Position numbers and translations under genes: made by a program. The notes beneath the pieces were generated by a model, which saw nothing but the letters and a program-made list of their open reading frames with translations, had not been told where the DNA came from and made no database searches. From Perkinsus olseni (taxonomy: Eukaryota; Perkinsozoa; Perkinsida; Perkinsidae), in the NCBI GenBank assembly GCA_013115135.1, contig JABANP010000128.1, positions 57,766-121,765 of the forward strand: a DNA stretch of 64,000 bases. Reading direction: 5' to 3'. Below are positions 3,224 to 60,010 of this stretch, in pieces; position 1 is the first letter of the stretch, and each line of letters starts with the position of its first letter.

Positions 3224-6200
3224 ATGGAAGTGTTCGTATCCCGACTACTACAGCCGTCTGTGAGTGCCATACACTCCCTGGCCTTCAGTGACAAGGAGGA
3301 TCTCCTGGCAGTAGGACTGTCTGATGGATCGATACAGCTGCTGTGCTCCAGTACTAGAGCCGACTCGCCTAGTGCTGCCCGCTATTAAGTGGCAGATACC
3401 TGGGCCGTGCGATGCGTCATCCCGGGGTGTGAGGGTGAGAGGTCGGTGAGAAGGCTTTGCTTCGTAGAAGGTCGCCTCTTTTCGACTGGTGTCCACGGAC
3501 AGATCACGGAGTGGTCCACTGATACCGGCAAGGAGATGTAGTAGGGGGGGGATGGCGAGCAGGGTTGAAAATTGGAGAATCTTGCAGATGGTTCGACTGG
3601 TGAATTTTTAGGGGTTCGTACCCGTCGAACGGTGGAGCGATATGGGATATGGCAGTGGATGAGGAGAGGAGGCTGTTGGCTGTGTCTACTGAGAGCGGAG
3701 CTATACCGATGTAATAGTAAGGGCATAGGAGCAGTGGTGGTGGCACGGGCCTCATGCGGCTGTACAGTCGCGGTAGGGTAGCAATTATAACGGAAATGGT
3801 CGTGGTGTGGTAGTATAAGGTACCACGTTGTGGTTTGGTTGGACCATACCAGTATAACAGAGGAATGATAGTGAAACATTGTGTAGGCAATTGTAGGACG
3901 TCGATGTAGTTCGATTATACTGTTGTGGTAGTGATGGTGGATGTAGTAGTAGTACAAGCAGTGGTAGTGGTGGTACTGGCAGTAGTCGGTAGTGGTGAGG
4001 GGCGGCGGTTTGATAGATACTCTCTCGGACCATCCGGCTCGACTACTCTGACTCGTCTGGGTGAACTGAAGGGAGAATATCAAGCAGCCAAGAAGAAGAA
4101 GGGCGGTGGCAGCAGCAGCGCTACCAGCCGGGCCTTGTCGGTATGCTTCGGTACCGTGTCCAAAGGACGAGACGATGGTAATTATCGGACGATATTCTCG
4201 GGAAACGACAGAGGAGTGGTTAGTGAATGGCGAGTGGAAGTGAAGGAGGGTGATGATGGTAGTACAGAAGGGGAAGGGAACGATAATGGCACGCGTATAT
4301 GACATTCCCATGCTCGCGCATTTACGTAACCGGTCCCGGGTTCGAATCCCACGTTGGGCATTTTTTCAGGAACTCTTTCTCATGGGCAACACTACCTGTG
4401 TATCGGATAGTATGCGTATCTTACCTCATACTAATGCCGGTGGTGGAGTATTGGTATGGTCGTTGAAGGCTCTGTCGAAGGACAGGATCGTATCCGGCGA
4501 TTCTTCTGGCTGTTTGACACTGTGGGACGTGGACAAGCACGTCCAACTGCAGAGGGTAGTAGGAGGGTATCGGATTAACCGTTCGCCGGAAAATGGGGGA
4601 TTTATTCCGATTCGATCTGTGGTATATCCCCTGGTGTGCAGATACGGGAGCATCAGGCGGATATCCTGTGTATGACTGTACGACGAAGTGAGAAAAGGGA
4701 TAAATGCCGGCGATGGGATTCGATCCAGGGATCTTTGGGATGATAGGTCATGGAGCTCTCTGTTAGGCTCGGAGAACCATGATTTGGCCATCTTCACTAC
4801 CGGTGTCGATGCCAAGATATCGAAGTTCGCCGAGGCAAGCAATGGCGAGCTCACTGTGAAGACATCGTGAGGTTAACCCGTTTCGAGCCAGCTTGCTCAC
4901 CTGGAATCTTTTAAGATACTTCGTCAATCGTCGAGATGTCAACGCTATCTCCCTTCACCCGCAGCGGGAGGTACGCGAAAGTTGCTCCTACTTGGATCTG
5001 TCGATACGTGTGCATGCGTGCAGATTCTTGTGTGCGGTGGTAATGATGGTCAATTGGTGATCACGTCCACTAAGGCCCAGTTTACTCCTACTAAGCTTCC
5101 ACAGTAATGAGAACGCTGCCAAGGCGCGATGAAGCTAGTTTACGGTTTTTCTATCAGTTTCCACGGCCTAGCATCTTCGCCCTCGGGTGGCGGAGTTGTC
5201 CGTTGCAGCAGCTCACGGAGATTGGTGCTCACTGTGTGGCGGAATTCTATGAAGATATGGTAAGTCGGCACAAGAGTTACCGAAGGAGTGGTATGGCAGC
5301 ACTTCCCTGGGCCCAGGTATATACCCGATAAAAGCGCTGTTGCCTCCATTGCCGGCTCTGGGTCGAGCGAATCTTTGGACATGCTGGCCAACGGCGGAGT
5401 TGGAGTGGATACCCCCACCCGAACGAACAAGCCGATCTGCCTGCAGGAAGTTGCCCTGAGTGCACCTGACCACATCGTCGCTTCTGATATGAGCAAAAAT
5501 GGCGAGTACGCTATTCTGCGTTCAACTCCTTCGTCGATCCATACCAAATTTTCTCAGAATCATCGCTTGTTGCACAGCCAGTGGCGGAGTACGTATCTTT
5601 TCCTTCGTACTAGACGAGCTTGAGCTGTCGAGGTTGGCTGTCGTGCCCGACCTCAAGAACGTCACCGCTCTCTGCCTTGACGACAACTCTCAGGGTTCTA
5701 GTATATGGTAATACCATAAATTCCCTCTTTCATCGGCGAACCTGGTTGTTTTCAGCTACGCTGCTGATAGCGATTCGGGAAGGATCCAACGTCTCGATGC
5801 CTCAGCGCCTACCGGGGAGCATGCCCCTTGGGGTGAGCTGCTGCGGATGGGCAGTAAGGGTGGCAGCTGGGGTGTCGCTCAGGTTCCCCTTTCCGAGGCG
5901 TGGTCACTCGGATGGCTTTGTCCCCCGTCGCGAAGAACGGCAGCAGGTGTTTGGTGGTGGCCGACAGCTACGGTGATGTCCACTGGTAGTAGAGGAGGTC
6001 GTGGGTTCGATCCCTGCAAGGGATATTTTATTCAGTATGGGCATATCGGAGTCGGGCTCGGAAGCAGCATTCTCCCGTACGTGCTGCCTTCCTTCCCATC
6101 GCCGTAATAAGAAGGCCAAGCGCCGTCTCGGAGCCATCGAGAACCGCAACACTGGGAAGATCTTTGCCACCTCGATCAGCTTCAGCAAAGATGGCAATCT

Positions 6201-7043
6201 ATGGTGCGTAGAGAAATACCACTGCTGGGAATCGAACCCGGTATCTCTTCTTAGCTTCATCACTAGTAGCAGCTCGATGCTGTACTGCTTCAAGATCGGC
6301 CCGAAGGCATTTGACCTTCTCTGGCACGTCGACGTGCGAGCGAACATCAGCCAAGGCAGCCGGCAGCACACCAAGGGCGTGGCTGTGGCGGAGTCTCGCG
6401 TCGAGATCCCCGGCCAGATCTTCCACACAGTGCAGGTGACCTCAGTAGAGGCGCGAACCAAGCAGGGCTCACCTACCAGTGTCAAGGTTGTACTGTAAGT
6501 TGATTCGAGGGAATCCACTTGCAATCTTGTGAATCTTGCATTTCCTCAGATTCGCGGACAGTCTTATACTAGCAGGTGATATTAAGTGCGATAAGTCCCC
6601 TGTTGAGGCGGCGTTCACTGTGGTGAAGAGTCGCTTCTCCGACGACACCGAGTCAAAGCGCTGGATGGGCTCCCACGTTCTAGGTAGGCGAGGGTGATGG
6701 CGGTGGAAGGCGCTGGGGCATGGAATCTTTTCCGTCAGGCTGCGCTCAGCTGGATGAGCAGGATTGGTTGCATGGCTACACTGATACCATCCCTAACGGA
6801 ATTGATGGTGAAGAGGAGGGTGCCTCTCCGAAGAAGCGTCGGCGGAGGGCGAGCTCGGCGGGTGGAATGCCCGGTGGGGTTGTTGCTGCTGCGGCCCAGG
6901 ACAGATCACTGGTAGGGGGAGCCATCATCGCCACACTCGTCTATGTTTTACTCTTCTCATAGGTGCTCTGCTCTGTGATAGACCAGACCGATATCGACCA
7001 GCAGTTACCGCCTGCCTTCGACCGGAAACACTTCTATCGTTGA
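3224..7043 (+). CDS. UTP4: UTP4/Cirhin-like WD40 protein (gene span, at least 16 introns)
   Basis: WD40 protein of the small-subunit processome (t-UTP subcomplex), which acts in nucleolar pre-rRNA transcription and processing. Exons joined by eye give, in order, the N-terminal WD repeat (IHSLAFSDKEDLLAVGLSDG), RLFSTGVHGQITEWS, GGAIWDMAVDEE, VLVWSLKALSKDRIVSGDSSG, FTTGVDAKISKF, DVNAISLHP-ILVCGGNDGQL, DHIVASDMSKNGEYA, MALSPVAKNGSRCLVVADS and a C-terminal QLPPAFDRKHFY, which matches the conserved Cirhin/Utp4 tail (QLPPP-basic). Well-supported introns: 3351-3395, 3538-3611, 4556-4641, 4688-4766, 4867-4915, 4971-5023, 5260-5316, 5986-6035, 6204-6266. The exon around 3.75-4.05 kb is uncertain. Several introns carry tRNA T-arm remnants (listed separately). 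The start at 3224 is the first Met consistent with family length. Confidence 0.85.
4240..4369 (+). repeat. tRNA T-arm remnant in a UTP4 intron (sense)
   Basis: The intron before the exon starting at 4370 contains CCCGGGTTCGAATCCC (4335-4350), a Pol III B-box/T-loop, followed by TTGGGCA and TTTTTT. This T run is followed directly by CAG, so a Pol III-terminator-like run also forms the polypyrimidine tract of the 3' splice site. The 5' splice site is chosen by reading phase (GTGAAG at 4240) and is less certain than the acceptor. The T stem is only partly paired, so this is a decayed or partial tRNA, not a gene. Confidence 0.7.
4688..4766 (-). repeat. T-arm-like sequence in a UTP4 intron (antisense)
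   Basis: A 79-base phase-1 GT-AG intron. Read on the minus strand it contains GGATCGAATCCCATCG, close to the tRNA T arm with one change in the loop, followed by GCCGGCATTTAT. The upstream exon ends HQADILCMTVRR and the downstream exon begins SSENHDLAIFTTGVD, so the intron call is good; the tRNA relationship is weaker than for the other members. Confidence 0.5.
5986..6035 (+). repeat. tRNA T-arm remnant filling a 50-base UTP4 intron (sense)
   Basis: The 50-base phase-2 intron runs from GTAGTAGAGG to TTATTCAG. It contains GTGGGTTCGATCCC and then GGGATATTTTATTCAG. Bases 5991-6010 are identical over 20 bases (AGAGGAGG...GGGTTCGA) to bases 38994-39013 read on the minus strand, inside an intron of an unrelated gene. 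Joining across it restores the frame ADSYGDVHC-MGISESG of UTP4. Confidence 0.8.
6204..6266 (-). repeat. tRNA T-arm remnant in a UTP4 intron (antisense)
   Basis: A 63-base phase-2 intron (GTGCGTAG to CACTAG). On the minus strand it reads ACCGGGTTCGATTCCCAGCAGTGGTATTTCT: a good T arm, an acceptor-like stretch and a short T run. The flanking exons SFSKDGNL and SSSMLYCFKIG are in frame when it is removed. The element here is inverted relative to the gene, unlike the one 170 bases upstream. Confidence 0.75.
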
Positions 7044-8660
7044 GGGCCGCGGTGTGGGGCTGCTTCGCTCCGCTGTTCACCAGGGCCTTTTTCGGCGGTT
7101 TCTGTGGTCATCTTCGAACTATTACCAACGTAAAAGTCTCCCTATCTGTTGTCTATTGTCGTTTCTCTTCCACCCGATTGATACACTGTGCTGGGGGTCA
7201 CCAGCTATGGTGACATCTCCTCCACAATAATCATCACGTTATCGTTACCATAGGGGTGCCGAGCTGTTAATAGTCCGGGCCGAGGTTGGGGCATGGGTTC
7301 GATCTAGCGCCCTTAGCGGTGGAAGTCGTGACAAGATCTACTCGGCCGTCCTGCTTTCTTTATCGACCCGTATACGTATACGGCGAGTGTACGTACGGAT
7401 TCGACAATGCCTTAGAGACTCTTGTGCTGCAATGCCCTCGACCACTCATGACGTTACCTGCTCAGCAGTCCTTATCGAGAGCAGCCCCCAGCCTAATAAT
7501 GCCGTCGTACGACTAACGTGATGATCTAGCAGTGTGATGCGAGGGATGATGCAGTTGGGGGGTGTCGGTGCTCTCTCGTCACACATCTTGGGGTGTGACG
7601 ATCCTGTTGCTATGCTATGCTGTCGGTCGGCTGGTGGGCAACAGAGGCACCGCCAGGGTTCGAACCTCCGCTGTAGTATATTTTTGGTCGTATCAGACAT
7701 GCCCAGCGGAGTAAAGAAAGGAGCGTCCCCCCATTACCTCTTTTGGGGACTTCGACAATATGACGGCAACCAACCTGATATTCGGGAAGGGAGTCCACCC
7801 TCGCCAGTGGGGCTCGAGTTCGCATGGCTCATGCTGCTCCCGCTCGCCTGGTTGTCGAATGGGGTCTGCCGTGAAGTGGAGTAGGCGACCAGGAAGCTCC
7901 GGTGACGGCTAGGCTTCCCTTGCCAGCCGACTTGGAAGTAAGCCATTCCGCCAGAGATCTCAAACTTGGGCATCATCGTCGGTCACCGCATTTGCCCCAG
8001 CAGATACACCACGTAACAAGGCTCACGGCTAAGATGTCCACCGCGTGCCCTCTCCTACAGAGGCGATTGATGAACCAACTCGAGCTTTGGACCTGACGTG
8101 TAAGTAGACTGCTGTTTGTTCGCTTTCGTTACCCAACCATGGATCAAGGCGGATAACATATTGATGGCCTATTGTAGAGTATGGCGCTGTCTCCATCTCA
8201 ACGCTCCACCACATCTATTGATGGAGCATCTGACACAGTCGAGACTGTCCCGAACGAAACGCACGTGAAACCTGTGATCTCCGAGATGGGGCGAGGCCCG
8301 GCACCCAACTGGCGTCGCATAGCTCTACGACGGCAGCTAGGGTGACGCGGAGGCAAACTGAGCCGCGGCCGAAGACGACACCACTAATGGCAATCGCGGT
8401 TCGGCAGGCACAAGTTTCCTCTCGAAGGTCTCGGTTAAAAATGTGAGAGCGATGTTGGATCGAACTGTCATCGAGCACCTGACAGCTCGAGACGGTTCTC
8501 CAGGCACTAGCTTGCTAGCGTGGCAAGCTCAACCGAAACGCTAATTGTCCCGCCGTGCGCTAAACACATCATAGCGACTCTCCGCGCCGGTTTTAACCCA
8601 GATAAACTACTCGTTCATCCACTGAAATAGATCGAAGTAAGATATCCATGGCGTCAAAAT
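7044..8660 (+). other. Unassigned region with a possible short-intron gene
   Basis: No protein family was recognised. On the plus strand there are open stretches at 7286-7516 and 7534-7884 that could be exons. The segment 7634-7696 looks like a 63-base intron (GTGGGC to GTATCAG) holding GCCAGGGTTCGAACCTCC and a TATTTTT run. Another B-box-like core (GGGTTCGATCT) lies at 7294-7304. Nothing convincing was seen between 7900 and 8660. Confidence 0.35.
7634..7696 (+). repeat. tRNA T-arm remnant in a probable intron (sense)
   Basis: GT...AG segment of 63 bases with CCAGGGTTCGAACCTCC, then a TATATTTTTGG run and GTATCAG. The arrangement (T arm, short spacer, T run, CAG) copies that of the UTP4 introns at 4240-4369 and 5986-6035. 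The surrounding gene is not recognised, so the intron status is an inference from this pattern. Confidence 0.5.
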
Positions 8661-8669
8661 CGTACTACA

Positions 8670-34509: not shown

Positions 34510-36655
34510 TTAGAAAGTAGAATGAGGGAAATGCTGCAACGGTAACATGACTAGGACACAACCCAGGTTTCCAGGAAACGATCTCCACTCGATCCACAAC
34601 AAGCTCACTCCGGTGGTACGTGCTCCTCATCCTCGGGTCAGCAGGGGCTTTATGAATCGTCCCGACTACTGCTGTTAACAAGATCGATCCACGGCAGAGC
34701 CAGCGTGGTGAGATCCGACCCAGGGCTGCACGTTATTCTGATTTCCCTTCTCCACCAACCCCTCTGCAGGGGATCACACAGCGACCGGTACTCGGCGAAG
34801 GCGAAGGGGTGTACAGCAATACCAAACCCGTAGCCCCCTCGGGGATTCGAACCGGGATCCTGCCGAATAGAAACCCGCCTTCCTCCCGAGTTGAACAACC
34901 CTCCATGCGAAACTCCCGACTGAGGAAATCGATACTAAACAAAGGCACAGCCTCTCCCACTGCGTTCAGGTCTTCCAATGGGAAGTCCATCAACCTCCCC
35001 ACTCTGAGCAGCTCCCCACGATTAGCCTCGTCCCGGATGGCCTCCGGCACAGTCCCCTCCCCCACCTCCGACGCTGCCCTCACTGCCACGCTTGTCGTCC
35101 AGCAGCCCCTACAGTGTAACACCCTCGTCGGACTGATACCAACTTTTTCGCTCAACATCGCTACCAACTCCAACGATTCAGGCCATCAATTGCTCCCCAG
35201 GGGAGGACCTGCTGACAGATGACCTCCCCAAGGTGGTACCGCTGCAGCATTCCGACACGCAGGACCTCTTCGAAGAACTCTTGCTGCGAGTCCGCCTCGA
35301 CCACTCGGACACTTTCGGCGAAGTCCTCGGGGGAGATGCGGAAGTGCTCAAGTTGGTCTCTCAAGATGGACCATAGGCCGTCGCCCTCCCTCGGCATCCA
35401 CGATACAAATGGACCCCGACAGCCGTTTGGCGAGCAGACACGGAATGATCGAGTGGCCTACTCCAGTGAGATCAATCACCACACCATCATTCGAAAGGCC
35501 TCCGGATCGAATCCCGGCATATCCCTCCCTTCTTATACGACTGGCGGTCATAATATCGAACTCGGAGACCCCAGGTGCCCCCATCACATAGGAGCCGTCA
35601 AAAGTCACGGAAAGCTTAGAGTCCTCGCACGACACTCTAACGCTGATCTTCTGCTCCTTCTCAACCTCCCTAGGAGGGCACGGGAACACTGCACAATCCC
35701 AGTCACAGTCCACAACGCTATCAATCCTAATATCACCATACAGCGTGGCCTCCCACCACACCAGCACGCATGCACACACTCCTCCCTCCCGGACCTCCAC
35801 CTCCCTTCGACCAAGCCCCCCTATCTCGCCCCTCCTGAAATCAGCCGTGCAGACCGTAAAGGTATCCGTCAGCTTCCTATACCGAAGCCCCTCACTCTTG
35901 TGCACGCTCGCGTAGGCCTCCTCCAGACGAACGCTCTCACTCAAGTAGTAACCTCGATCGCGTATCGCCTCTGACTCAACAACACAACCAAAGACTCGAA
36001 CACACTCCGGAATCACCACGGCCCCTTCCGTCAGCTGCCCTCGAGATCTCAAATCCTTTATGACATCCACAAACCCCTCCCCCAACAACGCACAGTCCAT
36101 CAGCTCCGCTACCACCATGTCCGCTGGCGTCTCCAGCGCCAGATCGGCAGAGTCAACTTGCACGACATCTACTCGAGAGCCACACGCCCGCCTTGCCACC
36201 TCGCAAAGTGCCCAACTACAGTCACATGCCGTTATTTTCGTTTTCGGCGGTGCGCACTCCGCCAGGTAACAGCTGAGTATACCCGTACCGCAACCAACAT
36301 CGATCACTCGATCGATTTCCTCCCCTCTGTCCTGAATCGCTTTGACTATCGCTTTCCTGTAGGCCCGATTCCTACCACCATCGTTGAGCATTCGAAGGTG
36401 CCACTCATCCACGCTGTCATGACGGAGCCGTTCTCGAAGCTGTTCCAGGATGATCCGCGCAGGTTCGATCCGCGCCTCCGGCATTTTCCCCAGCGCCAGC
36501 AGCCTCTTCCATCCTTCAGAGTACCTCTCCCCTGCACACAAGGTCTTGATCGACTCCACCTCCTCCAAGAACTTCTGCCGATCAACCATCCGAGAGAATC
36601 CAAACCTCCAGGGCAACGCAGTAATGCTACGATTCACGCCCACTCCCCCCGACAC
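34510..36655 (-). CDS. Two-domain protein arginine methyltransferase, PRMT9/PRMT7-like (gene span)
   Basis: Methylates arginines with S-adenosylmethionine. The first exon (open 36655-35348) holds an N-terminal helical part, WHLRMLNDGGRNRAYRKAI, SAM motif I VIDVGCGTGILSCYLAE, the post-I acidic site ACDCS and the double-E-loop equivalent VVAELMDCALLGEGFV. A degenerate second methyltransferase half follows (VIDLTGVGHSIIPCLLAKRL, in the same exon; then DGLWSILRDQLEHFRISPED and RVLHCRGCWTTSVAVRAASE in later exons), as in PRMT7 and PRMT9. The last exon ends at 34510. Met at 36655 or, 20 codons later, at 36592-36595 may be the start. Introns lie near 35173-35220 and 34791-34870; the latter contains a T-arm-like sequence. 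Confidence 0.83.
34791..34874 (-). repeat. tRNA T-arm-like sequence within the PRMT gene (sense)
   Basis: On the minus strand GATCCCGGTTCGAATCCCCGAGGGGGCTACGGG-like sequence sits directly before an acceptor (CGCCGAG at 34797-34791). The exact donor is uncertain: GTTTCT at 34874 looks best by eye, but reading phase favours GTTCGA at about 34848, which would start the intron inside the B box. The segment is also open in one frame, so an exonised element is possible. Confidence 0.5.
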
Positions 36656-37621: not shown

Positions 37622-40600
37622 TCAAGGGCCCGCACCGTACCACTCCTTCGCCAAATCCATGCCCCCTCTTTCTACAACACAGTCCACTGCTAGAAGGGCA
37701 TCAATTGCCCCCGTGAGCCAAGCATGAGCCCTCCTAAATACCCCGAAGAGCCTCTCCCCAGCAGTCGACCAGAAACCGCGACTAGCACTTCCGCTATTCA
37801 GGCACTCCAACACGAAAGCACAACAGAGGTAGAAAGGATATCAGTTACAAGTTCGGTACGACGATGGTGATATTGAACTACGTCTAAGCCGCCACTACTC
37901 CTCTGCATACACACCAGGATGCTCCTGACGACACTACCACTTCTACCCCACTGCCCCCTCCCGCCCAGCACTACCGGTCGATCCTCGTCCTCTCCGACCT
38001 CCATCACCTCAGCCTGTTGTTGGGGTTCATCGTCTTGCTGCGGATCACCTCCGCCCTGCTGCTCAACAGCTGGCTGCTCGTCGTCCTCAGGAATCTGATG
38101 CCACTCACACTACCACAGCAGCCGCCTCCCTAGTGCCCACCCCTTCTACTTCTGCTCCAATAACAGCACCGGCCTCCGGAGGCAGGGGCTGCGTCGGCTC
38201 CGTTACCTTAGCCGCTGCATCAGCTGTCTCGTTGGCCAAATAGGAACTATCCACAACCACGACTGATGCCTAGCAGCTCTCTACGGACAACTCGACAGGC
38301 TATCCTACGGTCGGCGAGGTCAGCCATTATCGAAACACCCTTTCGGAGCGTCTCCAATTTTCGACGATTTCCCGCGCCTCCTCCACTCCTGCTTGGTACT
38401 ACCATTTGAAGGGGTATTTAGTCGACTGTTTGACAAACTCCTCCGCGGCCCAACGGCTCTCGAACCGTACGATGCAACTATCCTCCCTCCAGATGAAATC
38501 GCGAACACCCTTAACGTCAAGGACCTGCAAATCGTGTGCATGCGTGCTACACCATACCAACTTTTCCGCAACTCACCCTGAAATACTCCATCACAACAGG
38601 GACGGAATCAAAGTCCGAGTCCATCTCCTCGAGCAGCACTGCTCTTGGCCGATTGTCCAATGTCATCCGATCTTGAGACTGAGGGCGTTGAGGAATGACA
38701 AGATGCGCAAGATGAGCAAGTTGCCAGTACCTCCTTCGACTGATTCTTCTGGAGCGCTTGCATGCCCGCATACCGTGCTCGAATGGCTGCATCGCGAGCC
38801 TGAAAGCACGACCGGTAAAATTCCTGGCAAAACACCTCGACCGGGATTCGAACACGAGACGTCGTCCCTCCTACCTTAGCCTTCTCAGCCTTCTCCTTTT
38901 GCATGTCCTCCGACAGCGCATGCATTTGCTCCTTCACTTTCTCTGATAGAGACAAAAACCAGATTCTGGTTACCAGAATGCCACCCCCAGGATTCGAACC
39001 CACGACCTCCTCTCCTCCCAACTCACCCAGCATCTTCTTATACATGTCCCTCTGTGCCTCTGACGTCCTAACAACAGCCAACTCATCCCTAACACCCTCG
39101 TCAACCCCCGCTCGTTCAAAGCTCTCTACACAGTACCACTCCTCCCCCTTCCCTTGGTACTACTTCTCATCAGTCAGCTTAGACAGCAGCTGTTTGACAG
39201 TTTCTGACATCCTAGACAGGACTGCTACCCGCTGCATCTCCTGTGCTTGCTTAGCCTCCCTCGCCTGACACCATCCATAACCATCAGGACACTCAACCAG
39301 TGGTGGGCCACCACCACCTACCGCCCGTTGATGCTGATGCTCAGCGTTCTCCAATACTAAATTACCAGCATGCCGAGGCTGTTGCTGTCGGAAGCCTACA
39401 CTCAGAGCCATCCACATCACCCTACCCTCACCCCTACTACCTTTCCCTCCGCCTTCACGATACCCACCTCGGCCTCCTCCGCCCTGTCTCCCACCACCGG
39501 GAGAAGCACCTAACATCATCATCACGACGTCATCCAGATATCATTATTTCCGCGGAGAGCAAGCTTCGACCCCGATCGTAACTACCTCCAGGTCCACTCA
39601 TTTGGGGCATCACTGAGGGCGCACCAGCCGGTAGGTTGGTGACTTGCCATTTCACCTGATACGCGATGCTGGACCCGGGTTCGAACCCCGGTGACGGAAC
39701 ATCTTTCCCCTACCTGAATCTCTGGGTGACCCAAAACGGGCTCTGCCATCATCGCTATAGCCGACTGCCGAGTACTAACGTACCAAAACAATCGTAACTC
39801 GCAGCTCTCTCACCGGACCTCAGGATTATTATTACGTAAACTCTACAGTAGCATTGCCTTCCTCGAGCTTGCAGTGCACCCCACTCACTTCCCTGAACAA
39901 CAACAACACCATCGCCCCACCACCACCACCACCACCACCACAGCCCCCTCTACCCGTATTTCTGGCAATGCTGGAATAACGCCGGCAAAGACACGTCCGA
40001 AGGAATGTTACTCAGTATCTGATTATCGTCACATAATCCGTCACTGCGCCACGAAATTACCCCTACCAGAGTGCTAGGCGGCGGCGCTCTCGGAGGGGGT
40101 GGTGGAGGCTGCTGTTGTTGTCCATACCCTCCTGCACCTACATCAGATCCACTTAGTCGAGCCACCCCTCCCGCTGGGAGTTTACTACCGGCAACTGGTG
40201 GGGGTGGGGGGAACTGCGGCGGTAAGGGAGCATTCATCTGGCGAGGTTGAAACCTGCTAGATACAAAATAAAAGATACTTTCCTCAACCCTTCCTACGTT
40301 GGGTTCCCTGGCTGCCCAGCTGGCTGACCCCAAGGCTGCTGCTGTCCTGCGTATCTATCACAGATCCGTCACTAAGGGAAAGATTCCCCTAAAATCTTCC
40401 TACTGCGCACTCCCCCAGGCCGCTGCCGTAGCAGTCGGTGGCGCTGTCGTTGAAGGTCCTCCCCCAAAGGCCGCAGTGAGATCATCGTCATCGTCACCAT
40501 ACCTACCACCCAACTCACGCCCATACACCCCGCACCCTCCTCCCTACCCGAACTGAGCTGCCATATCGTCATCATTCATGCCTTCCGGTTTGGGCGGAGG

Positions 40601-42031
40601 CGGCTTAGCCGGATGGAAGCGCTGCCACCAAGGGGTGTTGTCCTCGGCCTTACTCGCTGAGTTCTCTGAAGGGCTAAGGCGTCACCAGCAGCAACGCCCC
40701 TCCTCCCGTCCATACCCTCCTTAGCTCGGCCCTCCCCTTCAGGACCTCCACTGGTCGGAGAATCATCTCCATAACCCAGAGGATCCTCATCATCATCACT
40801 AACACCGCTGTTACCCATTTGGTTGTACGGGAACGGCAGTTCACCGTCCGACCCGTCATCAACGGCGTCAGCAGCAGGAGGAGGCAGCTCCTCCTCTTCA
40901 GCATGGGGTGGTGGGGGGGCCTTCTCGTGTACCCGAGACTTGTCCTGTGACCGAGACCGCGACCTACTCGCCATGCGGCCCCTGTGGCCTCCGGCACCTA
41001 TCAAAGGCCCACGTCCTCTACTAGGCAAATAAGGCGAAAATTCAACCGAAGTTGGATCCGCACACGAGATTCGAACCAGACACCTCTCGATCAACAAACG
41101 CACCCTTTACCGCCCCACCACTACCATCTCTTCGGGATCGGTCGTCCCTGCGATGATCATCCCGGTAGTAAGAGTCTCTATCGCTTCCTCTATTCCCTCT
41201 CGTCCTCCCCCTCGGAGATGGACTCCTGTAATGACGGTCTCTTCGTGAGGACCCTCGAGGCATTAGTTCAAACAGGGAGCGAACCAGGACGACCGCTGCC
41301 CATACCATCTTTCCCCCAACACCCTACACAAGTCCATCACCATCCGAAACGTTGTGGGGTGCTACCATCGTATCTGGGACCTGGCCTTACTACCCCTCCG
41401 CTTTGAGTCTTCCCACTGGGCACTGACTCCCGCCACAGTCTCCTCCGTCCAGTCCTCTTTACCACTCTGACCGGCCGGTACGACCAGACGAACCCTCGAG
41501 CCCCGGGACTTGGCAGCTTTACGCTCCTGCCGTTGCTTGGCGATGGCTGAAACACACACGTCCACATACGTGAAGAGAAACCCCAACGTCCACTACAAGG
41601 CCGCGTCTTCGAGGCGAACTGCTCCGTGAGCCGAGTAAACCTAAGCAGCAGCAGCCTAGCCCTCCCCTATCCACTGCAGTGCCCTCCCCCAGTACATGTA
41701 TGCCTTCTCTGCCTTGTGCTTCCGTTCCACCCGACGCTTCTCAAGCTCACTAGGGGTCATCTTATCAGCCCCTAACCAAGGACAAGCTACCACGGAGGTG
41801 GCCGAGTCTGGTGTAACGTAAGGCCAGTGGGACGTACTGACTCCACCACAAACGGATTATTCTCTCCACGCTCCACAGATTAGATCTTCCCTCAGAACAG
41901 CTCAGAATCGAGGACGCATGATGCCTACTTTTCTGAGTACTACTGGCCGCGGCCTGGGCGGTCTGTACCGCCTCGTGCTCACGTTCCTCCTCAACGGCCC
42001 TCCGATACTCAGCAGATGATGTGGACATGCT
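37622..42031 (-). CDS. RS-, Pro- and Gly-rich nuclear-type protein (gene span, one or two genes)
   Basis: Start MSTSSAEYRRAVEEEREHEA at 42031. Exons in order: NPFVVESVRPTGLTLHQTRP; MTPSELEKRRVERKHKAEKA; QERKAAKSRGSRVRLVVPAG; an Arg-Ser domain (SSRRDRHYRSPSPRGRTRGN, MASRSRSRSQDKSR); acidic SDDDEDPLGYGDDSP; TPWWQRFHPAKPPPPKPEG; FQPRQMNAPLPPQFPPPPP; VLGHPEIQ-VKWQVTNLPAG; a Gly-rich RGG-like part (GGGGRGGYREGGGKG); SEAQRDMYKKML-EKVKEQMHALSEDM; ARDAAIRARYAGMQALQK; a Gln/Asp-rich stretch; and MDLAKEWYGAGP with the stop at 37622. RS, RGG and proline-rich parts are typical of pre-mRNA processing factors; the specific protein is not recognised. At least four introns carry tRNA T-arm remnants. Confidence 0.5.
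38824..38874 (-). repeat. 51-base intron consisting largely of a tRNA T-arm remnant (sense)
   Basis: Runs from GTAGGAGGG (38874) to TTTTGCCAG (38824) on the minus strand. It contains CT-CGTGTTCGAATCCCGG and a TGTTTTG run before the acceptor. Phase 0: it separates EKAEKAK from EFYRSCFQARD. Its T-arm 3' half (GAATCCCGGT) is also present beside the retrotransposon LTR at 57600-57609. Confidence 0.78.
38943..39026 (-). repeat. 84-base intron with a tRNA T-arm remnant (sense)
   Basis: Runs from GTGAGTTGGG (39026) to TCTATCAG (38943), phase 1 (joining ML to EKVKEQM). It contains GTGGGTTCGAATCCTGGGGGTGGCATTCT-type sequence and a GGTTTTTGTC run. Positions 38994-39013 match 5991-6010 exactly over 20 bases. 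Only a 68-base exon (38875-38942) separates it from the T-arm intron at 38824-38874. Confidence 0.8.
39656..39713 (-). repeat. 58-base intron with a palindromic T-arm core
   Basis: Minus-strand intron from GTAGGGGAAAG (39713) to CGTATCAG (39656), joining GHPEIQ to VKWQVTNLPAG. The core GGGTTCGAACCC is a perfect palindrome, so the T arm can be read in either direction; the plus-strand reading continues GGTGACGGAACATCTTTCC. Confidence 0.75.
39914..39944. repeat. (CAC)n microsatellite
   Basis: About nine CAC units. It lies in or next to an intron of the RS/Pro-rich gene (minus strand) and creates spurious open frames on both strands. Confidence 0.85.
41021..41125 (-). repeat. tRNA T-arm-like sequence in an intron of the RS-domain gene (sense)
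   Basis: Minus-strand sequence between the RS exons contains GAGGTGTCTGGTTCGAATCTCGTGTGC (41056-41082), followed by pyrimidine-rich sequence and a CCTAG acceptor at 41021 or a GATAG acceptor slightly further. A donor at GTAGTGG (about 41125) with the GATAG acceptor keeps the RS frame; the exact borders are not certain. Confidence 0.55.
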
Positions 42032-51754: not shown

Positions 51755-51847
51755 CTCATTGGTGTAAAAAGTGAATGATAGATATAGCAATGGATTTACG
51801 CAAAAGGTCTTGCAAAGTCTTACAGCAATACGATCAGATAGTGATAG

Positions 51848-54800
51848 TTAGAAATGAAGATATACCAGATCATCATCTTCTGGCGGGTCTTCAGCAGCCG
51901 GGGCTTCTGGGATGGGGGCCTCGGCTTCCTCGTAACGATAGGAGTCCACGTTGTCAACGGGGGGCAAGTAGCGGCGTAGGTTGAAGACCGTCTCGAGGTA
52001 GCGTAGAGGGCGTCCATCCAAAGTCTCGAGCTGATAGAGAGTGTTGGAGTTGGAGGAGTTCACCACACGATATGGGCCGGACCAGCAACTCGATTGCTTG
52101 AGCGAGCCTTTCTTGAACTTGAGTACCTTGTCACCAGGCTTGAAGATATGCATGTGAGCACGAGGGAGTGGCAGCTTCTCAAAGCGTTGACGAACACGAT
52201 CAGAGCGTTCGCACCAAAGATCCCAGTAGTCAACCATAGTCTCACAGCGTCTAGTAGCAACTTCATCGGCCATGCGGAGAAGGTCGTCCTGCAGGATCTC
52301 GCGCTGAGGGTCCAAGATGGTCAAGGACGGGAGCCACTCCTTGAGCTTCTCGAGGGACACGTTGTGCTCGTCGGAATCGTCATGACCGACCGGGTAACGG
52401 GGCCTTCTGCAGAAGTGAAGCTCATGAGCCGACAAGCCGCCGAAGTCGTAGAGAGGTAGACGGTTGAGGGCACTAACGCTCTCAGCCACAACCGTAGACA
52501 AAGGAGTGGGATCGGGAGATCGAGCCGAGTCGATCAAGCGAGCCCTAATCTGCTCGAGTAGTTGACCATGGAGTCGTTCGTGGAACCCGCCGTAACCTCT
52601 AGCATCACGAGGTAGCCAGCAAGCGCGAACGTTCCAAGTCTTGAGGAAGTACAAGAAGGGAGCCGACGTGAATACAGACCCCACGTCGCTTACCAGCACC
52701 AATGGTATTCCTCGGACAGCAAAGCTGCGCTCCATAGCAGAGATGACCAAAGACGTAGTAGGATAGGGCAGGATGTCGTAGTCCACAGAGAAGCTCACCG
52801 GGTCAAGTATAGTGAGAATCCAACGCTTCGAGTCAGACTGAGGAGCACTTGGATCGACGAGAGGACCTTGGAGGTCGACCACCACGACGTTGCCGATGTC
52901 GAAGGATAGACCCGGAGGTCTGACCACTCCACCTTGAGACCGGGAAGCATTGCGACGACGCTTGCGCTGGCAGGTGTCGCAGGTGCTGACGATACGACGA
53001 AGATGGGACCGTAGCTTAGGGGTGTAGTAGTAGGTCTGATAGAGTGTGACCGTCGAGCTAGCAGGTGGATGGCCCATGACGTCGTGAAGGTCTCGTAGGC
53101 AGGCGAGGGCAGCAGCAACAGGGGGGACGACGGGGAGGGCCTTCTCGAAGCGAGTGTTGGAGACAGAGGTGCAACCATGGAAGTAGAGAATGCCATCGTC
53201 GACCGAGTAGCAACGGAGGCTAGCAGGAACCTCGTTGGGGGTAACGTGCTGAAGGGTGTGGATCATGTTGTAGGTGCGAGCATGGTCTTGCTGTAGCTGA
53301 CGAATGGCGTCGAGGGGGAAGTAGTTCTCCAGATCACGCACCCGAGGGTCGACTTGGTCGTTGATGACAGCGATGACCTTAGGCTCAGCAGCACTTGTAG
53401 TCTTGGAGGAGTTAGCAGGGTTGATCTTAACGCTCATCTCCGCGAAGTTAGCCATCTCCAGATCAGCCTTGATGTGATCGGGGTTAGGCAAACCAGGTAG
53501 ATCACCAGAGGTCACCGGGCGAGTGGCAGCGTCGGCGGGGTTGAGTCGACCAGGGAGGAACTTGACGACCACTTCGAGGTTCATATCGACGGACATCTCC
53601 TTGAGCTGAGTCAGAGCAGTGCGAAGTCGACGTACCTCGAGGGGGGTGATGAGCTTGAGCTTAAGCTGAGAATGTAGTCGACGAACCCTGTACACCGTGC
53701 AGCCAGAGTCGAGGTAGAAGCAGATCTTGCGAGGATCAAACCGGTGGTGCAACCTCCTTATCAGGGTCAAGTAGTCATAGACAGCCGAGACAGCATCGCA
53801 GAAGCAGATGGTTTCCTTCTTGGGAATCGACCACTTCTGCTGAGTGGCAGTCCATAGATGAGACTGAGCGAAGATGCGCACCAAGGCAGCGTCGTGAACG
53901 GTGAAGGCTGAGGCCTCGCCACTAGCATCAGAGAAGACGTTGATGGTGGACAACGCGACTGAACGAGGAGTGGAGGTCAGCCTAGGACCGTCGGACTTGA
54001 TGTTCTTGATCAGTGAGAGCATACGTCTAGCCAGATCGTCAGAGACGTAGGAATCCCAGTCCTCCGCAGTGGAGAAACTGAGGCGCACCATCATCCGCAA
54101 GCTCGAAGAGTACTCAACCGCCAAGCCTAGGGGGTCATAGAAAGTCATTGCCAGCTTGAAGACCTCTCGTCGAGTAAGGCGGTCACGACTGAGGATGGCA
54201 GCGATGTCGTCCTCGTCCTTGTAGCGGATGAAGTAGCAGTCTTCGAACCAACGATAACCCAAGTAGGAGACTTCCTTGTCCATCAGCCAAGACCTGACCC
54301 GCTTGAGAACATTGGAGGGAAAGCCATGGCGCTCCAAGGACAGATCGAGGGAGTCAGCACAGCGAGTGACGGACTGGATGTCATCTCCACGGCTCTGGGT
54401 GTCGTCGACGTAGATGCTGACCTTACCACGGAACTGTGGGGGAAGTTCAGAACTAGCCGGGTCGGTGGCGGCGGAGTCGCTTGAAGCACGGTTGTCGTCG
54501 AAGGTGTCAATGACCTGAGCCACAACCGGATCTAGCTGCCGAGCTTCTTCACGCGAGAGGTAGCCAGAGTCGTAGTCCGCCAGAACCACGCAGCCGCACA
54601 GTGCTTGAGTAAGAGCCGATGGGGCGAAGTTAGCCCCGAAGATCAGAACCCGCCACTTAGCCGTAACCAAGTCGTGACCAATCCGGAAGACCATACCGAA
54701 GTAAGGCCTGTCTTGAGAACAGATGGATATCCTGTGAAAGGCCTTCGAGATATCACCGGTTATGATGAAGGGGGCGACACGACTGAGGTGCAAGTTGGCC

Positions 54801-57586
54801 AGCAAGGAACAGCCAAGGTAGTCATCAGATGCAGCGGGCCCAGAGTGGCAGAGGGGGTTCAACTCCTGGGAAGGATCAAGGACCAGTCTCACCCGAGTCG
54901 AAGCAGCATGCTCACGAAACACGGGCATAGAGGGCACGAGGTGGACCACGTCGGAGCTACCCGAGTCGACAAAGTGGTTCTCGAAAAGGCTGGAGAACAC
55001 GTCCAAGTAATCACTGCGTTGAAGTGGAGTGAGTCGAGCATCGGTAGCCACCGCACGACGTAGGCATCGTTGATTCCCATCAGACGTAGGGCGCTCTTGG
55101 CCTTTCCAAGGGACTTGCAATTGGAACCGTCCATAGGAGGCGTCATCAGTTGGTGGGAGTAGCTCCCAACCAAAGGCGGAGAACTTCTCGTCGGGAACCG
55201 TATCTGCATGATCTTCGACCGGGGAAGGAGTTGCAGACTTCTTCCTCTTAGGGATAGCAGCATCAGTAAGATCTCGCAGGAGATCGTCAGGCACAAGGTC
55301 TTCGACGCTCAAGTCAGGGTAGGACTCTTCGGGAGCATGGTCGATGGCGATGTTGCAGAGCTCCACGACCGGTTGATAGACAGCAGACTTAGAGAAGGAA
55401 GGCTTAGGGCCAGACAAGGCGGAGGCGAGCTTAGAAGCTTCTTCTCCTAGCACAAGTTGATCTCGACCAAGTAGCCAGACTGCATCCATCTCTCGCAAGA
55501 TACTAGCACTGAGGATCACATCCCTAGTCATGGCGTTGGACACAACGATGAAGTCAGTCTTCACCTCGTGAGCATCCAGGAACCGCACAGACACAGACTT
55601 GGCCACACCGATGACAGACGGACGCCCACCGTCGGCGGTAACCAGAGTGACATTAGTAGACTGCAGGCGGAAGTCAGGCACACGGGTGAGGGCGTCCATG
55701 GTGATGACACAAGCTTGGGCACCAGTGTCCAGTAGCGCAGAGAAGGTACAGGACGAGCCGTTGAGGTGAACCGGCACAGCATGATCTCTAGTCGGGGAGC
55801 CACCGAGAGAAAGGGCCTGAATAGACCTTGATGAGGGCGCTTCAGCCTTGCAGCACCAAGCGCAGTGGTTCTTCTTACCGCACCGCTCGCAAGCCTTGTT
55901 AAAGGTGTCGTACTCCTTGGGGCAGTAGAGTGTAGGAAGATGTACCAGTCCGCAGAAGTAGCAGCGGTCGTACTTGATGGCACCACAGCAGGTAGGAGCA
56001 GAATGACCGTCACCAGTCAGGCAGCGACCACACTTGGCAGAGATGATGAGCTTGTTGACAGGGTCGTTGAGGATGGCGGAGTCATCCCTAGTTCTCTTAA
56101 TCTTGGGCTTGGTGGCAGTAGGCTTGAGAGGGTCAGTAGAGGTCTTCAGCATGGTAGAGTCGTAGATTGGTGATGCAGAGGGATTAGCCACAGGGTTAGC
56201 CGTACTAGTAGGCAGGTTGGCTTGGTCGATGGAGTTGACCGTCATGTGCTTGCTATCCCAGTGAACACTGCACCACGCCTTGATGGAGTCGACTAGGGCC
56301 TTGTAGTTCATCACACCAGCTTGCTTGTAGCCGCGCTCGTCGAGGTAAGAACGACACTTAGCGGGCATACCGGAGTACATCCGACAGCGGAGTTCTTGCT
56401 CAGATAGCTTGGGAACGTGGCGAGACCTAGCAACCTCACGAGAAAGACTCTCGAACCGTGACCAGAACTTGAGGAAGGTGGTGCCTTTCTCCAGCCAAAC
56501 AGAGTTCCACTTATCCTCGAGATGATCGCCGTCGGCGCCGGAGTAAGTGCTTTCTAGGAAGTCCCAAGCATGAGCAGTGCGAGCTACCCAATAGTCAGAT
56601 TGGGCACCGTAAGGATCGCTGTACTGAGACTCGTCCACAGGATGATCTTCATCGTAGCAGTCAAGTAGTCGTTGCAAGTCAATGGAGAGGTTATGACGGA
56701 GTAGGAAATAACGCCACCTAGGGTCCGACCAGACGTAGGAGGGGGCCTTAGTGAACTTAGACTTGAACTCAGACAGACCAACCTCATCGTCCTCGCTGCT
56801 CCATGGGTGGCCTAGCACTTGAGGGGTCCACTCTACCTCCTTGATAACCTTGCCAACTTGCTCACGGGAGGTGACAGACTTCCAAGTAGACTGGTTACGA
56901 TTGCTATAACCGCCGTAGGAGCCTTCTTGCTTCTGCTGATAGTCTTGCTGATAGTAACCGCCTTGGCTAGGGCGTTGTTGCCAGCGTCCATGATGATCGG
57001 GCTCAGAATAGTCGTTGTAGTCGTTGTAGTCGTAAGGGGCTCGGCCGTAGTGAGCACGACGAGAAGGTTGTTCACGATCAGGAGGGAACACACTAGATGA
57101 ACGGACGGACACCACACCCGACCTGGTAGGCGGAGGTCTCGGAGGGGGCCCGCGTCTAGCGGCTTCGTGTTGCAGAACCACACGAGGAGCAGAACGATCA
57201 CCAGTGAGTGGTCCGCGAGCACGATCTTGAGCACCAGCCGATGGAGGATCAGGAGGCAGGAGGTCGTTGTGGTTGCTTTGGTTACCAGCGGGAGTGCCGG
57301 CTGGCAGACCAGGGTCGTCGTCGTGGTCGTGGTCGTCGGGATGGTCACGCTCTTCAAGATTATCACGGCCATCTTGGTTGACAGGGTCTTCTGGGCCTTC
57401 TTGGTCCTCATGATGCTCAGAGTCTCCTTGGTCTTCGGGGTCTTCTTGGCCTTCTTGGTCTTCACGGTCTTCACGGTCTTCACGGTCTTCTTGGCCATTG
57501 GGGGTCTCATAGAAGGGAGGATCAGAACGGACTTCTTCTTCCTCGTTGTCAGCGTAGTTACCAGCACGTCTTCTTGGTCTTGACAT
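51848..57586 (-). CDS. Gag-Pol polyprotein of the LTR retrotransposon
   Basis: Single uninterrupted frame of 1912 residues. N-terminus: acidic, repetitive Glu-Asp/Gln region (about 15-95). Gag core with aromatic WTPQVLGHPW and WRYFLLRHN. Cys/His cluster at about 515-580 (CGRCLTGDGHSAPTC; CYFCGLVHLPTLYC; CERCGKKNHCAWC). Aspartic protease LLDTGAQ at about 620. Reverse transcriptase: GDISKAFHRI, YVDDT at about 1058. DPLGL at about 1152, RNase H SDAS at about 1220, and LNPADAATRP. Integrase: H...CDTCQ zinc region (to about 1535), then the DDE residues in VVDLQGPL, VSDVGSVF and GGFHERLH (about 1572, 1632, 1670). No stop or frameshift separates gag from pol, so both products come from one polyprotein. 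Confidence 0.96.
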   Translation of the reverse strand: MSRPRRRAGNYADNEEEEVRSDPPFYETPNGQEDREDREDREDQEGQEDPEDQGDSEHHEDQEGPEDPVNQDGRDNLEERDHPDDHDHDDDPGLPAGTPAGNQSNHNDLLPPDPPSAGAQDRARGPLTGDRSAPRVVLQHEAARRGPPPRPPPTRSGVVSVRSSSVFPPDREQPSRRAHYGRAPYDYNDYNDYSEPDHHGRWQQRPSQGGYYQQDYQQKQEGSYGGYSNRNQSTWKSVTSREQVGKVIKEVEWTPQVLGHPWSSEDDEVGLSEFKSKFTKAPSYVWSDPRWRYFLLRHNLSIDLQRLLDCYDEDHPVDESQYSDPYGAQSDYWVARTAHAWDFLESTYSGADGDHLEDKWNSVWLEKGTTFLKFWSRFESLSREVARSRHVPKLSEQELRCRMYSGMPAKCRSYLDERGYKQAGVMNYKALVDSIKAWCSVHWDSKHMTVNSIDQANLPTSTANPVANPSASPIYDSTMLKTSTDPLKPTATKPKIKRTRDDSAILNDPVNKLIISAKCGRCLTGDGHSAPTCCGAIKYDRCYFCGLVHLPTLYCPKEYDTFNKACERCGKKNHCAWCCKAEAPSSRSIQALSLGGSPTRDHAVPVHLNGSSCTFSALLDTGAQACVITMDALTRVPDFRLQSTNVTLVTADGGRPSVIGVAKSVSVRFLDAHEVKTDFIVVSNAMTRDVILSASILREMDAVWLLGRDQLVLGEEASKLASALSGPKPSFSKSAVYQPVVELCNIAIDHAPEESYPDLSVEDLVPDDLLRDLTDAAIPKRKKSATPSPVEDHADTVPDEKFSAFGWELLPPTDDASYGRFQLQVPWKGQERPTSDGNQRCLRRAVATDARLTPLQRSDYLDVFSSLFENHFVDSGSSDVVHLVPSMPVFREHAASTRVRLVLDPSQELNPLCHSGPAASDDYLGCSLLANLHLSRVAPFIITGDISKAFHRISICSQDRPYFGMVFRIGHDLVTAKWRVLIFGANFAPSALTQALCGCVVLADYDSGYLSREEARQLDPVVAQVIDTFDDNRASSDSAATDPASSELPPQFRGKVSIYVDDTQSRGDDIQSVTRCADSLDLSLERHGFPSNVLKRVRSWLMDKEVSYLGYRWFEDCYFIRYKDEDDIAAILSRDRLTRREVFKLAMTFYDPLGLAVEYSSSLRMMVRLSFSTAEDWDSYVSDDLARRMLSLIKNIKSDGPRLTSTPRSVALSTINVFSDASGEASAFTVHDAALVRIFAQSHLWTATQQKWSIPKKETICFCDAVSAVYDYLTLIRRLHHRFDPRKICFYLDSGCTVYRVRRLHSQLKLKLITPLEVRRLRTALTQLKEMSVDMNLEVVVKFLPGRLNPADAATRPVTSGDLPGLPNPDHIKADLEMANFAEMSVKINPANSSKTTSAAEPKVIAVINDQVDPRVRDLENYFPLDAIRQLQQDHARTYNMIHTLQHVTPNEVPASLRCYSVDDGILYFHGCTSVSNTRFEKALPVVPPVAAALACLRDLHDVMGHPPASSTVTLYQTYYYTPKLRSHLRRIVSTCDTCQRKRRRNASRSQGGVVRPPGLSFDIGNVVVVDLQGPLVDPSAPQSDSKRWILTILDPVSFSVDYDILPYPTTSLVISAMERSFAVRGIPLVLVSDVGSVFTSAPFLYFLKTWNVRACWLPRDARGYGGFHERLHGQLLEQIRARLIDSARSPDPTPLSTVVAESVSALNRLPLYDFGGLSAHELHFCRRPRYPVGHDDSDEHNVSLEKLKEWLPSLTILDPQREILQDDLLRMADEVATRRCETMVDYWDLWCERSDRVRQRFEKLPLPRAHMHIFKPGDKVLKFKKGSLKQSSCWSGPYRVVNSSNSNTLYQLETLDGRPLRYLETVFNLRRYLPPVDNVDSYRYEEAEAPIPEAPAAEDPPEDDDLVYLHF

Positions 57587-57599
57587 GGATCAGTGTTGT

Positions 57600-58759: not shown

Positions 58760-58965
58760 GTGGACCACATATATTGAAGCCACCGGCACTAGTGCCGCGC
58801 CCAGGGGTCTGCAATAGGCCCTATTGAATAGGGCCAGGGTTGTCCGGGCGGAAAGAAAAAATTTCTTTCTTGCGGAAATTTCCCGTATTTTCCGGGAATT
58901 TTGAACTTCAGGAAATTTCTCGAAAGTTCCAGGGAGGTAGGGGGTTCGATTCCCGGCGAAGACAT
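58760..58965 (+). repeat. Hairpin-rich segment with a T-arm remnant
   Basis: Contains GGCACTAGTGCC (palindrome), GGCCCTATTGAATAGGGCC (hairpin) and AAATTTC-rich inverted sequences at 58856-58920, then GGTAGGGGGTTCGATTCCCGGCGAAGACATTCTTTCT (58936-58970), a T arm followed by CATT and a T-rich run as in several introns. This looks like a small non-autonomous element. Confidence 0.5.
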
Positions 58966-59503
58966 TCTTTCTCTTGGCGACAAAGACAACCGAGATTCCA
59001 GAATATTGACAACCACACAGCCGACGCGACCCATATCAGCGTTGAAAATTTCATCGCTGTGAGCTGTCGAGCATGATACATTGATACATGAGATGCTTTC
59101 GTGCCCTATGACATTCTGACTGATAAGACTTTAACCGTAGGAGTGGTCAATGGGAGGCCTCATGTGATCATCAGTGTGACAAAACCTCACTATGTGATGA
59201 CATCCAGCAGAACAATTGGGACCTTCCTCACCTCGAGCAAGGTCACAGAGGGATTTCTTTCCTATGAGCACACGGCTTCAGGACATATTATGTCCGACAT
59301 AAATTCTAATTCACATTTCAGATACGATAGCACTTGTGCACAGCTCATCTGAGAAGGAACATATCATGTACCCAAAACTGCTCCCCGAGCAGGAAGTACC
59401 CACTTACTTCCAGAAAGTCTGCGAGTGATAACGTCAGTGAAAAGGAAATTGCGGAGCGAGCGAAGCGAGCGGAGCAAATACTGCCACTTCTACGCTTTTT
59501 TGT

Positions 59504-59529
59504 GCGTTCGTTCGTTCGTTCGTTCGTTC
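59504..59529 (+). repeat. (TTCG)n microsatellite
   Basis: About six TTCG units (GCGTTCGTTCG...TTCA). It creates a repetitive Val-Arg-Ser-Phe stretch in a 195-codon open frame (59334-59921) that I do not accept as a gene. A T-arm-like core (GGTGTTCGAACCCG) lies at 59704-59717. Confidence 0.85.
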
Positions 59530-60010
59530 AAATTATTTCTCCACGACTATGTCGATTCAACTCGCGAGACAAATACCATTCGAAAGCACGTGGTTTGTAT
59601 ATTCTACAAAAAAATACGAAATCGCTCCCATCCCCGTTCCACCAAGCACAACCGTCGTGGACCGTTGTAGACGAACCCGAAAAAATACGGAAAAAGTCCG
59701 TGCTGGTGTTCGAACCCGAAACTTTGTGTCGAGCTCCGCTTTTTTCGTTACGAAAGAGACTGAGAGCGAAAGAAAGAGAGATTCCCTCACTCAAGGAGGG
59801 TACAAAGATTTGGGGAAGTATCGTGAACTCGAAAGCTGGGCAAGAGGAGCAGTTCGTTGAGAGGCAAGTACCATATTTGCGGGGTTGGGTTTGCAGAGCT
59901 AAGAAGAGGATGGTGAAATGATTCCATTGAAACCGATAATCATGACGAGCTGGCTCACTGAGTATGCCGGGCATACTAGCCCTCCTGGTCACGGGTGGGT
60001 TTGACTGGAG

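What the first reader, a model, noticed from the sequence alone, without database searches (positions are those of the whole stretch)
4240..59720. tRNA T-arm remnants recur inside short introns of unrelated genes
T-loop/B-box cores (TTCGAATCC, TTCGATTCC, TTCGAACCC, TTCAATTCC) occur in introns at 4240-4369, 4688-4766, 5986-6035, 6204-6266, 7634-7696, 18564-18687, 34791-34874, 38824-38874, 38943-39026, 39656-39713 and about 41021-41125, in both orientations, plus intergenic copies at 42.58, 58.53, 58.94 and 59.71 kb. The 9-mer TTCGAATCC is expected about 0.5 times on two strands of 64 kb at even composition and is present at least four times, none in a confirmed exon. The simplest reading is that tRNA-derived (SINE-like) elements have founded or invaded introns: a tRNA-based introner family. 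Introners and tRNA-derived SINEs are each known; I am not aware of this combination being described, but could not search.
Basis: partly seen in the sequence, partly recalled or inferred. Interest (0 to 1): 0.88.

Follow-up and report, generated by a model that had tools for sequence, protein, structure and literature searches.

The report
tRNA-tail-like elements that form introns
In the genome of a single-celled parasite of shellfish, a number of the tiny stretches that are cut out of gene messages look like copies of the last third of a transfer RNA, which suggests an unusual way in which genes may gain new introns.

Summary
The genome is Perkinsus olseni (protein names and contig length). 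The motif is real: TTCGAATCC occurs 1472 times genome-wide against 302 for the reversed word. The decisive test is geometry. A B-box core, exactly 10 bases, then ATTTT (A at tRNA position 73, T-run where a Pol III terminator lies) occurs 483 times; with 8, 11 or 12 bases it occurs 3, 34 and 8 times, reversed 0. Of 100 listed copies 95 differ in the 10 bases, yet they cluster; the 5' part of the tRNA is lacking. Kinesin and dynein genes on other contigs carry such introns too. Five of the nine best-supported introns are only 49-58 nt, and both orientations occur, so I think the element founded them. In one, P. chesapeaki still codes residues that P. olseni has turned into intron. Mobility is unproven: no covarying T-stem, no firm target-site duplication, no empty site found. 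New variant of a known kind (introner).

The parts
4688..4766 (+). 79-nt intron of the UTP4/cirhin gene; carries an antisense element (tRNA positions 44-73 = 4734 down to 4705)
   Evidence: Spliced translation agrees with P. olseni protein P0121 and P. chesapeaki P0122 across the junction TVRR/SSEN; profile hit
5986..6035 (+). 50-nt intron of the same gene; sense element 5996-6025 followed by T-run and CAG
   Evidence: also one of the 483 N10-ATTTT sites (C33:63769)
6204..6254 (+). 51-nt intron of the same gene; antisense element 6246 down to 6217
   Evidence: profile hit
4331..4366 (+). sense element with TTTTTTCAG directly 5' of the first residue of the deposited cirhin protein; probably the 3' end of an intron, 5' end undetermined
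   Evidence: C33:62104; protein model starts at 4382
38800..38874 (-). 75-nt intron of a gene for an RRM-annotated protein; sense element 38862 down to 38833
   Evidence: Junction KAK/ARD in P. olseni P0127 and P. chesapeaki P0128
38943..39026 (-). 84-nt intron of the same gene; sense element 39008 down to 38979. The last exon base and the first 11 nt of the intron read GELG; P. chesapeaki still codes GGLG there
   Evidence: Junction KML/EKV in P0127; KLLGGLGEKV in P0128
39656..39713 (-). 58-nt intron of the same gene; element with palindromic core GGGTTCGAACCC, orientation ambiguous
   Evidence: Junction HPEIQ/VKWQ in P0127 and P0128
40998..41124 (-). 127-nt intron of the same gene; weaker sense element near 41085 down to 41056
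   Evidence: P0127 reads RRDGAGGH across it
58935..58964 (+). good element outside predicted genes
   Evidence: Profile score 23
7649..7678 (+). element 3' of the UTP4 gene; intron status unknown
   Evidence: Profile score 18
34832..34861 (-). element-like core; predicted as exon, intron status unknown

Best explanation
A family (more likely a set of related subfamilies) of very short dispersed elements, each resembling the 3' third of a tRNA plus its Pol III terminator (AGGTC - T arm - 7 bases - A - TTTT, about 36 nt), has inserted into P. olseni genes in both orientations and founded short GT-AG introns. In the sense orientation the T-run serves as polypyrimidine tract before a YAG. The 5' splice site lies a few bases upstream of the element, in sequence that was exon. 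Copies keep the 3' end but lack the 5' part, so the likeliest route (inferred) is reverse transcription of the 3' parts of tRNA-like Pol III RNAs by the non-LTR retrotransposon machinery of this genome. Shown: the family, its geometry, and introns that contain it. Inferred: insertion as the founding event, and the RNA route (about 0.4 for the RNA route alone).
For: Geometry: GGTTCGANYCC+N10+ATTTT 483 sites, reversed control 0; N8 3, N11 34, N12 8. Among all 72 non-tRNA GTTCRANYC cores in 264 kb, unselected for flanks, A rises to 0.40 at position 73 and T to 0.42 at positions 75-77. Not tRNA genes: 95 of 100 listed 10-mers distinct; ARAGORN 0 of 15 fetched N10-ATTTT sites; six or more of seven bases of the acceptor 5' strand upstream in 4 of 30 elements against 7.6% at random, 3 of 3 tRNAs. 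Lineages: among 92 ten-mers (three tandem ones dropped) pairs within 2 mismatches are 82 against shuffled mean 37, maximum 63. Introns: 7 window introns in deposited proteins; kinesin P-loop GQT/GSGKT (E 3.2e-14); dynein heavy chain (E 3.7e-7). A gene finder blind to the motif, which predicts 11 of 12 UTP4 introns exactly, puts 14 of 28 elements in short introns that are 15% of the sequence (p 1.7e-5). Founding: of the nine introns supported by deposited proteins or homologues, five are 49-58 nt, which leaves little room for an older intron around a ~36-nt element; in intron 38943-39026 P. chesapeaki still codes the stretch where the intron starts. Machinery: 57 matches to the endonuclease domain PF14529 (LINE-type by general knowledge), 20 of them in open frames over 1000 aa.
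Against: Outer T-stem pairs do not covary (19, 19, 17 of 39 paired against 17.8, 20.1, 15.6 shuffled; p 0.40), so the copies are not fresh copies of many working tRNAs. Target-site duplications: matched flanks barely more alike than unmatched ones (p 0.045 to 0.24 over five windows). No uninterrupted (empty) copy among the paralogues of 22 joined junctions; paralogues were found for 5, and the 4 with both exons matched are interrupted too. Four of the nine best-supported introns are 75-127 nt, long enough to have held an older intron. YAG within 15 nt after ATTTT: 260 matches (some sites counted twice) for 483 sites, about half, against 38% background, only a modest excess. The open-frame test for single loci is weak: 13 of 15 elements pass but so do 59% of random windows. 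An A-box-like match lies upstream in 5 of 43 elements, slightly more than the 3.6% at random. The best match of elements to the tRNA genes in hand is 18-24 of 30 bases. Elements are a few per cent of predicted introns, not most.
Confidence: 0.6

Rival explanations
1. Old introns invaded: the elements jumped into introns that already existed and only replaced or reshaped their content.
For: Paralogues share the interrupted state; four of the nine best-supported introns are 75-127 nt.
Against: Five of the nine are 49-58 nt and 17 of all 22 introns laid out are 43-58 nt (many of these rest on reading frames alone, and the fetched windows of 160-190 bases cannot show long introns). In 38943-39026 the intron start is coding in P. 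chesapeaki.
Confidence: 0.22
2. DNA-transposon-type introners (MITE-like) whose ends happen to resemble a T arm; spread by a transposase with short target duplications.
For: In the 2022 survey 59.2% of the 130 introner families whose ends could be judged had duplications, inverted repeats or both (PMC9860276, passage); insertion in both orientations; the kinesin and L073 introns have CAGGT-like repeats at both ends.
Against: I see no terminal inverted repeats in the aligned copies (by eye); duplications not significant overall. The conserved columns sit at tRNA positions 44-48, 52-62, 70-73 and the T-run.
Confidence: 0.15
3. Functional intronic element: the B box and terminator are kept because TFIIIC/Pol III or a T-loop structure acts in these introns.
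For: The core and the spacing are far better kept than the 4 bases at 66-69.
Against: The core was the search key, so its conservation is partly ascertainment; both orientations occur; no covarying stem.
Confidence: 0.1
4. Chance or composition, or ordinary tRNA genes and pseudogenes.
For: Of 20 sampled TTCGAATCC sites 3 are tRNA genes and 9 look like chance matches.
Against: 483 against 3, 34 and 8 at other spacings and 0 reversed; ARAGORN 0 of 15.
Confidence: 0.02

Closest known systems
Introners / introner-like elements (Micromonas, Aureococcus, Amoebophrya, fungi; Gozashti et al. 2022, PMC9860276, passages seen; Farhat et al. 2021, PMC7789003, passages seen)
   Same: Introns at unrelated positions share sequence; element and intron nearly coincide in many cases; short; aquatic protist.
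   Different: The shared sequence is a tRNA 3' end with terminator; no firm duplications or inverted repeats; GT-AG borders, unlike the non-canonical introners of the related Amoebophrya. The word find in the main text of the survey gave 0 for Perkinsus, tRNA and SINE; its supplement was not seen.
tRNA-derived SINEs (general knowledge)
   Same: B box, Pol III terminator-like T-run, dispersed copies, LINE-type machinery in the genome.
   Different: Mostly no A box, no 5' tRNA part, no body or tail seen beyond the T-run; size about 36 nt; inserted as introns.
tRNA pseudogenes and 3' tRNA halves (general knowledge)
   Same: Similarity runs from about the variable loop to the 3' end.
   Different: Many diverged copies in lineages, a good part of them inside introns.

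Membership tests
Introner | Similar sequence in many introns at non-homologous positions | tested here: met
   UTP4, RRM-protein, kinesin and dynein introns; two copies read as antisense introns of different genes share 23 identical bases (L084 and C1:71833-71886)
Introner | Spliceosomal introns removed from mRNA | tested here: met
   By protein models and homologues only: 7 window introns plus kinesin and dynein; no RNA-seq available
Introner | Insertion into exon creates the intron (presence/absence) | tested here: inconclusive
   One case by protein comparison (GGLG in P. chesapeaki); no empty paralogous site
Introner | Target-site duplications or terminal inverted repeats (seen in many families, not all) | tested here: inconclusive
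   Duplication test p 0.045-0.24; no terminal inverted repeat seen by eye in the aligned copies
tRNA-derived SINE | B box | tested here: met
tRNA-derived SINE | A box / 5' tRNA part | tested here: not met
   A-box-like upstream in 5 of 43 elements, 41 of 53 tRNA genes, 144 of 4000 random (an earlier pattern missed all 3 true tRNAs and is withdrawn); acceptor 5' strand at chance level
tRNA-derived SINE | Body and 3' tail shared with a LINE | not tested
   LINE-type endonuclease domains are present but their 3' ends were not read
tRNA gene | Cloverleaf found by tRNA models | tested here: not met
   ARAGORN 0 of 15 (L071-L085) and 0 of 8; Rfam tRNA model matches only the three real tRNAs among L051-L070, with sub-threshold tmRNA T-arm matches in L053 and L054

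The most novel reading that the evidence does not exclude
A wave of intron gain in Perkinsus driven by retroposed 3' ends of tRNA-like Pol III RNAs: the RNA polymerase III terminator becomes the polypyrimidine tract, the target supplies the splice sites, and up to a few thousand introns have this origin. It would be an RNA-borne introner made from a tRNA fragment.
Probability: 0.4. Interest if true: 0.86.

Novelty: new variant of a known kind. Interest (0 to 1): 0.72.

Why it matters
Where new spliceosomal introns come from is an old open question; in the 2022 survey most introner families that could be judged look like DNA transposons (PMC9860276, passages). An introner whose body is a tRNA 3' end plus terminator would give a second, RNA-based source with a ready-made 3' splice signal. 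It would be directly testable, because deposited proteins show that P. chesapeaki, P. marinus and more than one P. olseni strain have been sequenced. My nine paper searches listed nothing like it (open-licence PubMed Central only, no preprints; only three of the listed papers were opened).

Tried and rejected
Self-trained gene finder: the first runs found too few introns or over-predicted and were dropped; the stricter ones were used. They were trained on the same 264 kb. Exon translations printed for minus-strand genes are one base out of frame (the first base of the ATG was left out of the exon); corrected from then on. My first UTP4 model started two bases off, corrected.

De novo search for repeated 10-mers and for 7-base hairpin loops in 264 kb did not single out the T arm. 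Rfam on the window and on 20 loci found no tRNA match in the elements, only sub-threshold tmRNA T-arm matches in L053 and L054. The profile took in tRNA genes in its later rounds; a profile from 24 non-tRNA elements puts 7 of 400 predicted introns of 42-90 nt at 6 bits or more, against 0 reversed and 1 exon control, so the elements are a few per cent of introns, not most.

Single-locus open-frame test: dropped as evidence, since 1184 of 2000 random windows pass. The A-box pattern failed on 3 of 3 true tRNAs and was replaced. T-stem covariation: none. Duplications: not convincing. Empty site: none.

Full report
Identity. The window is G000:C33:57766-121765 of a 61.5-Mb assembly.

Observation. 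TTCGAATCC: 4 in the window against 0.61 expected, 736+736 in the genome against 153+149 for the reversed word. GTGGGTTCGANYCC: 204+205 against 2+4 (tandem tRNA genes contribute). Of 20 TTCGAATCC sites taken from the list (contigs 1-5), I judged 8 to be elements, 3 tRNA genes and 9 chance. One of the 8 (L066) is doubtful and was left out of the alignments.

What the element is. In 72 non-tRNA GTTCRANYC cores of 264 kb (window plus 200 kb of contig 1), A is enriched at position 73 and T just after it, in tRNA register. Genome-wide, B-box core + N10 + ATTTT occurs 483 times; N8 3, N11 34, N12 8; reversed controls 0 (N9 not run). The consensus of 39 aligned copies is AGGTC - CCGGG - TTCGAWY - CCCRS - NNNNGGC - A - TTTT (the core, and for 15 copies also ATTTT, was part of the search key). 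Positions 66-69 are close to random. The 100 listed 10-mers are 95 different ones; the 92 left after dropping three tandem ones are clustered more than shuffled columns allow at 2 mismatches (82 against 37, maximum 63) and 3 (271 against 185, maximum 241); at 1 mismatch 14 against 4.6, reached by a shuffle. Upstream, the acceptor 5' strand is at chance level and an A box is mostly lacking (5 of 43). So the element resembles the last third of a tRNA with terminator and is not a tRNA gene. From memory, AGGTCCCGGGTTCGATCCCCGG also resembles eukaryotic tRNA-Ala; the P. olseni gene for the common isoacceptor was not in hand and this was not tested.

Number. A profile finds 28 non-tRNA elements at 10 bits or more in 264 kb; the reversed sequence gives 0 at that score (third round). 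Twelve lie in the 200 kb of contig 1, which was not chosen for them, giving very roughly 3,700 in the genome.

Introns. Seven window introns are spliced out in the deposited P. olseni proteins. The P. chesapeaki proteins run collinear across five of the six junctions compared, and across the sixth with four extra residues; the seventh (40998-41124) rests on the P. olseni model alone. Whether those models rest on RNA-seq is not known to me. On contig 1 a 49-nt intron splits the kinesin P-loop GQT/GSGKT. L076 splits a dynein heavy chain at EG/FS. L075 fits alpha-tubulin only weakly (E 0.055). Of 15 N10-ATTTT sites fetched at steps through the list, I read 12 as introns, 8 sense and 4 antisense (one of the sense ones, L077, with an unusual GTCCCC donor), L081 as plausible, and L071 and L078 as not, but the frame test alone cannot carry this. 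A motif-blind gene finder puts 14 of 28 elements in short introns covering 15% of the sequence, 1 in a long intron, 7 in predicted exons and 6 outside genes; on contig 1 alone 7 of 12 are in short introns. One of the 7 'exon' cases (38998) is an intron in the deposited protein.

Founding or invading. The nine introns backed by deposited proteins or homologues are 49, 50, 51, 56, 58, 75, 79, 84 and 127 nt long. All 22 laid out are 43 to 84 nt, 17 of them at most 58, but many rest on reading frames and the fetched windows are short. In 38943-39026 the P. olseni exon stops at KML and the intron begins with codons for GELG; P. chesapeaki reads KLLGGLGEKV without a break. The simplest reading is that the element landed in coding sequence and an exonic GGTGAG became the new donor. 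P. chesapeaki DNA was not seen, so an intron with a donor further downstream is not excluded.

Mechanism. Many sense copies end in T-run plus YAG; antisense copies start GT, then the A-run. About half of the 483 sites have YAG within 15 nt of ATTTT, against 38% after any ATTTT of the sample. The fixed 3' end and missing 5' part would fit reverse transcription of a Pol III RNA. LINE-type endonuclease domains are present: 57 matches, 20 in frames of over 1000 aa. Against: no covarying stem, no clear duplications, no empty paralogue. The step from family to mobility is inference.

Literature. Gozashti et al. 2022 (PMC9860276; passages): the main text does not hold Perkinsus, tRNA or SINE. Farhat et al. 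2021 (PMC7789003; passages): Amoebophrya introners, with inverted and direct repeats and non-canonical splice sites. PMC3101222 (passages): P. marinus introns have GT/AG ends and are mostly under 100 bp. Nothing listed by nine paper searches combines introners with tRNA-derived sequence as far as titles and abstract starts show; most subscription papers and all preprints are outside the library.

Noticed in passing
window 59447-59754; L026, L031, L043: Dispersed repeat of about 300 bp, 84-90% alike between the window copy and three others, with a B-box/T-arm core and T-run in the same spacing as the elements (a pattern from its core occurs 31 times in the genome). It could be a longer SINE-like relative or a source of the elements.
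   Followed up: partly
window 36464 and 35506: Two element-profile hits inside the long open reading frame at 35348-36682; the one at 36464 has the N10-ATTTT spacing and lies antisense to the coding strand, possibly an element turned into exon.
   Followed up: no
window 51848-57589 (-): 1913-aa open frame that reads as an LTR-type retroelement polyprotein (label from reading the translation, no domain search).
   Followed up: no
window plus C1:1-200000 (places not looked up): The strongest repeated 10-mers of the 264-kb sample belong to a stretch around CACCTGAGAGGCTTGGCCCACA (up to 16 occurrences of its 10-mers).
   Followed up: no
G000:C50, C57, C75, C778: tRNA-like cores or tRNA genes in tandem arrays with periods of about 0.17 to 1.3 kb.
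   Followed up: no
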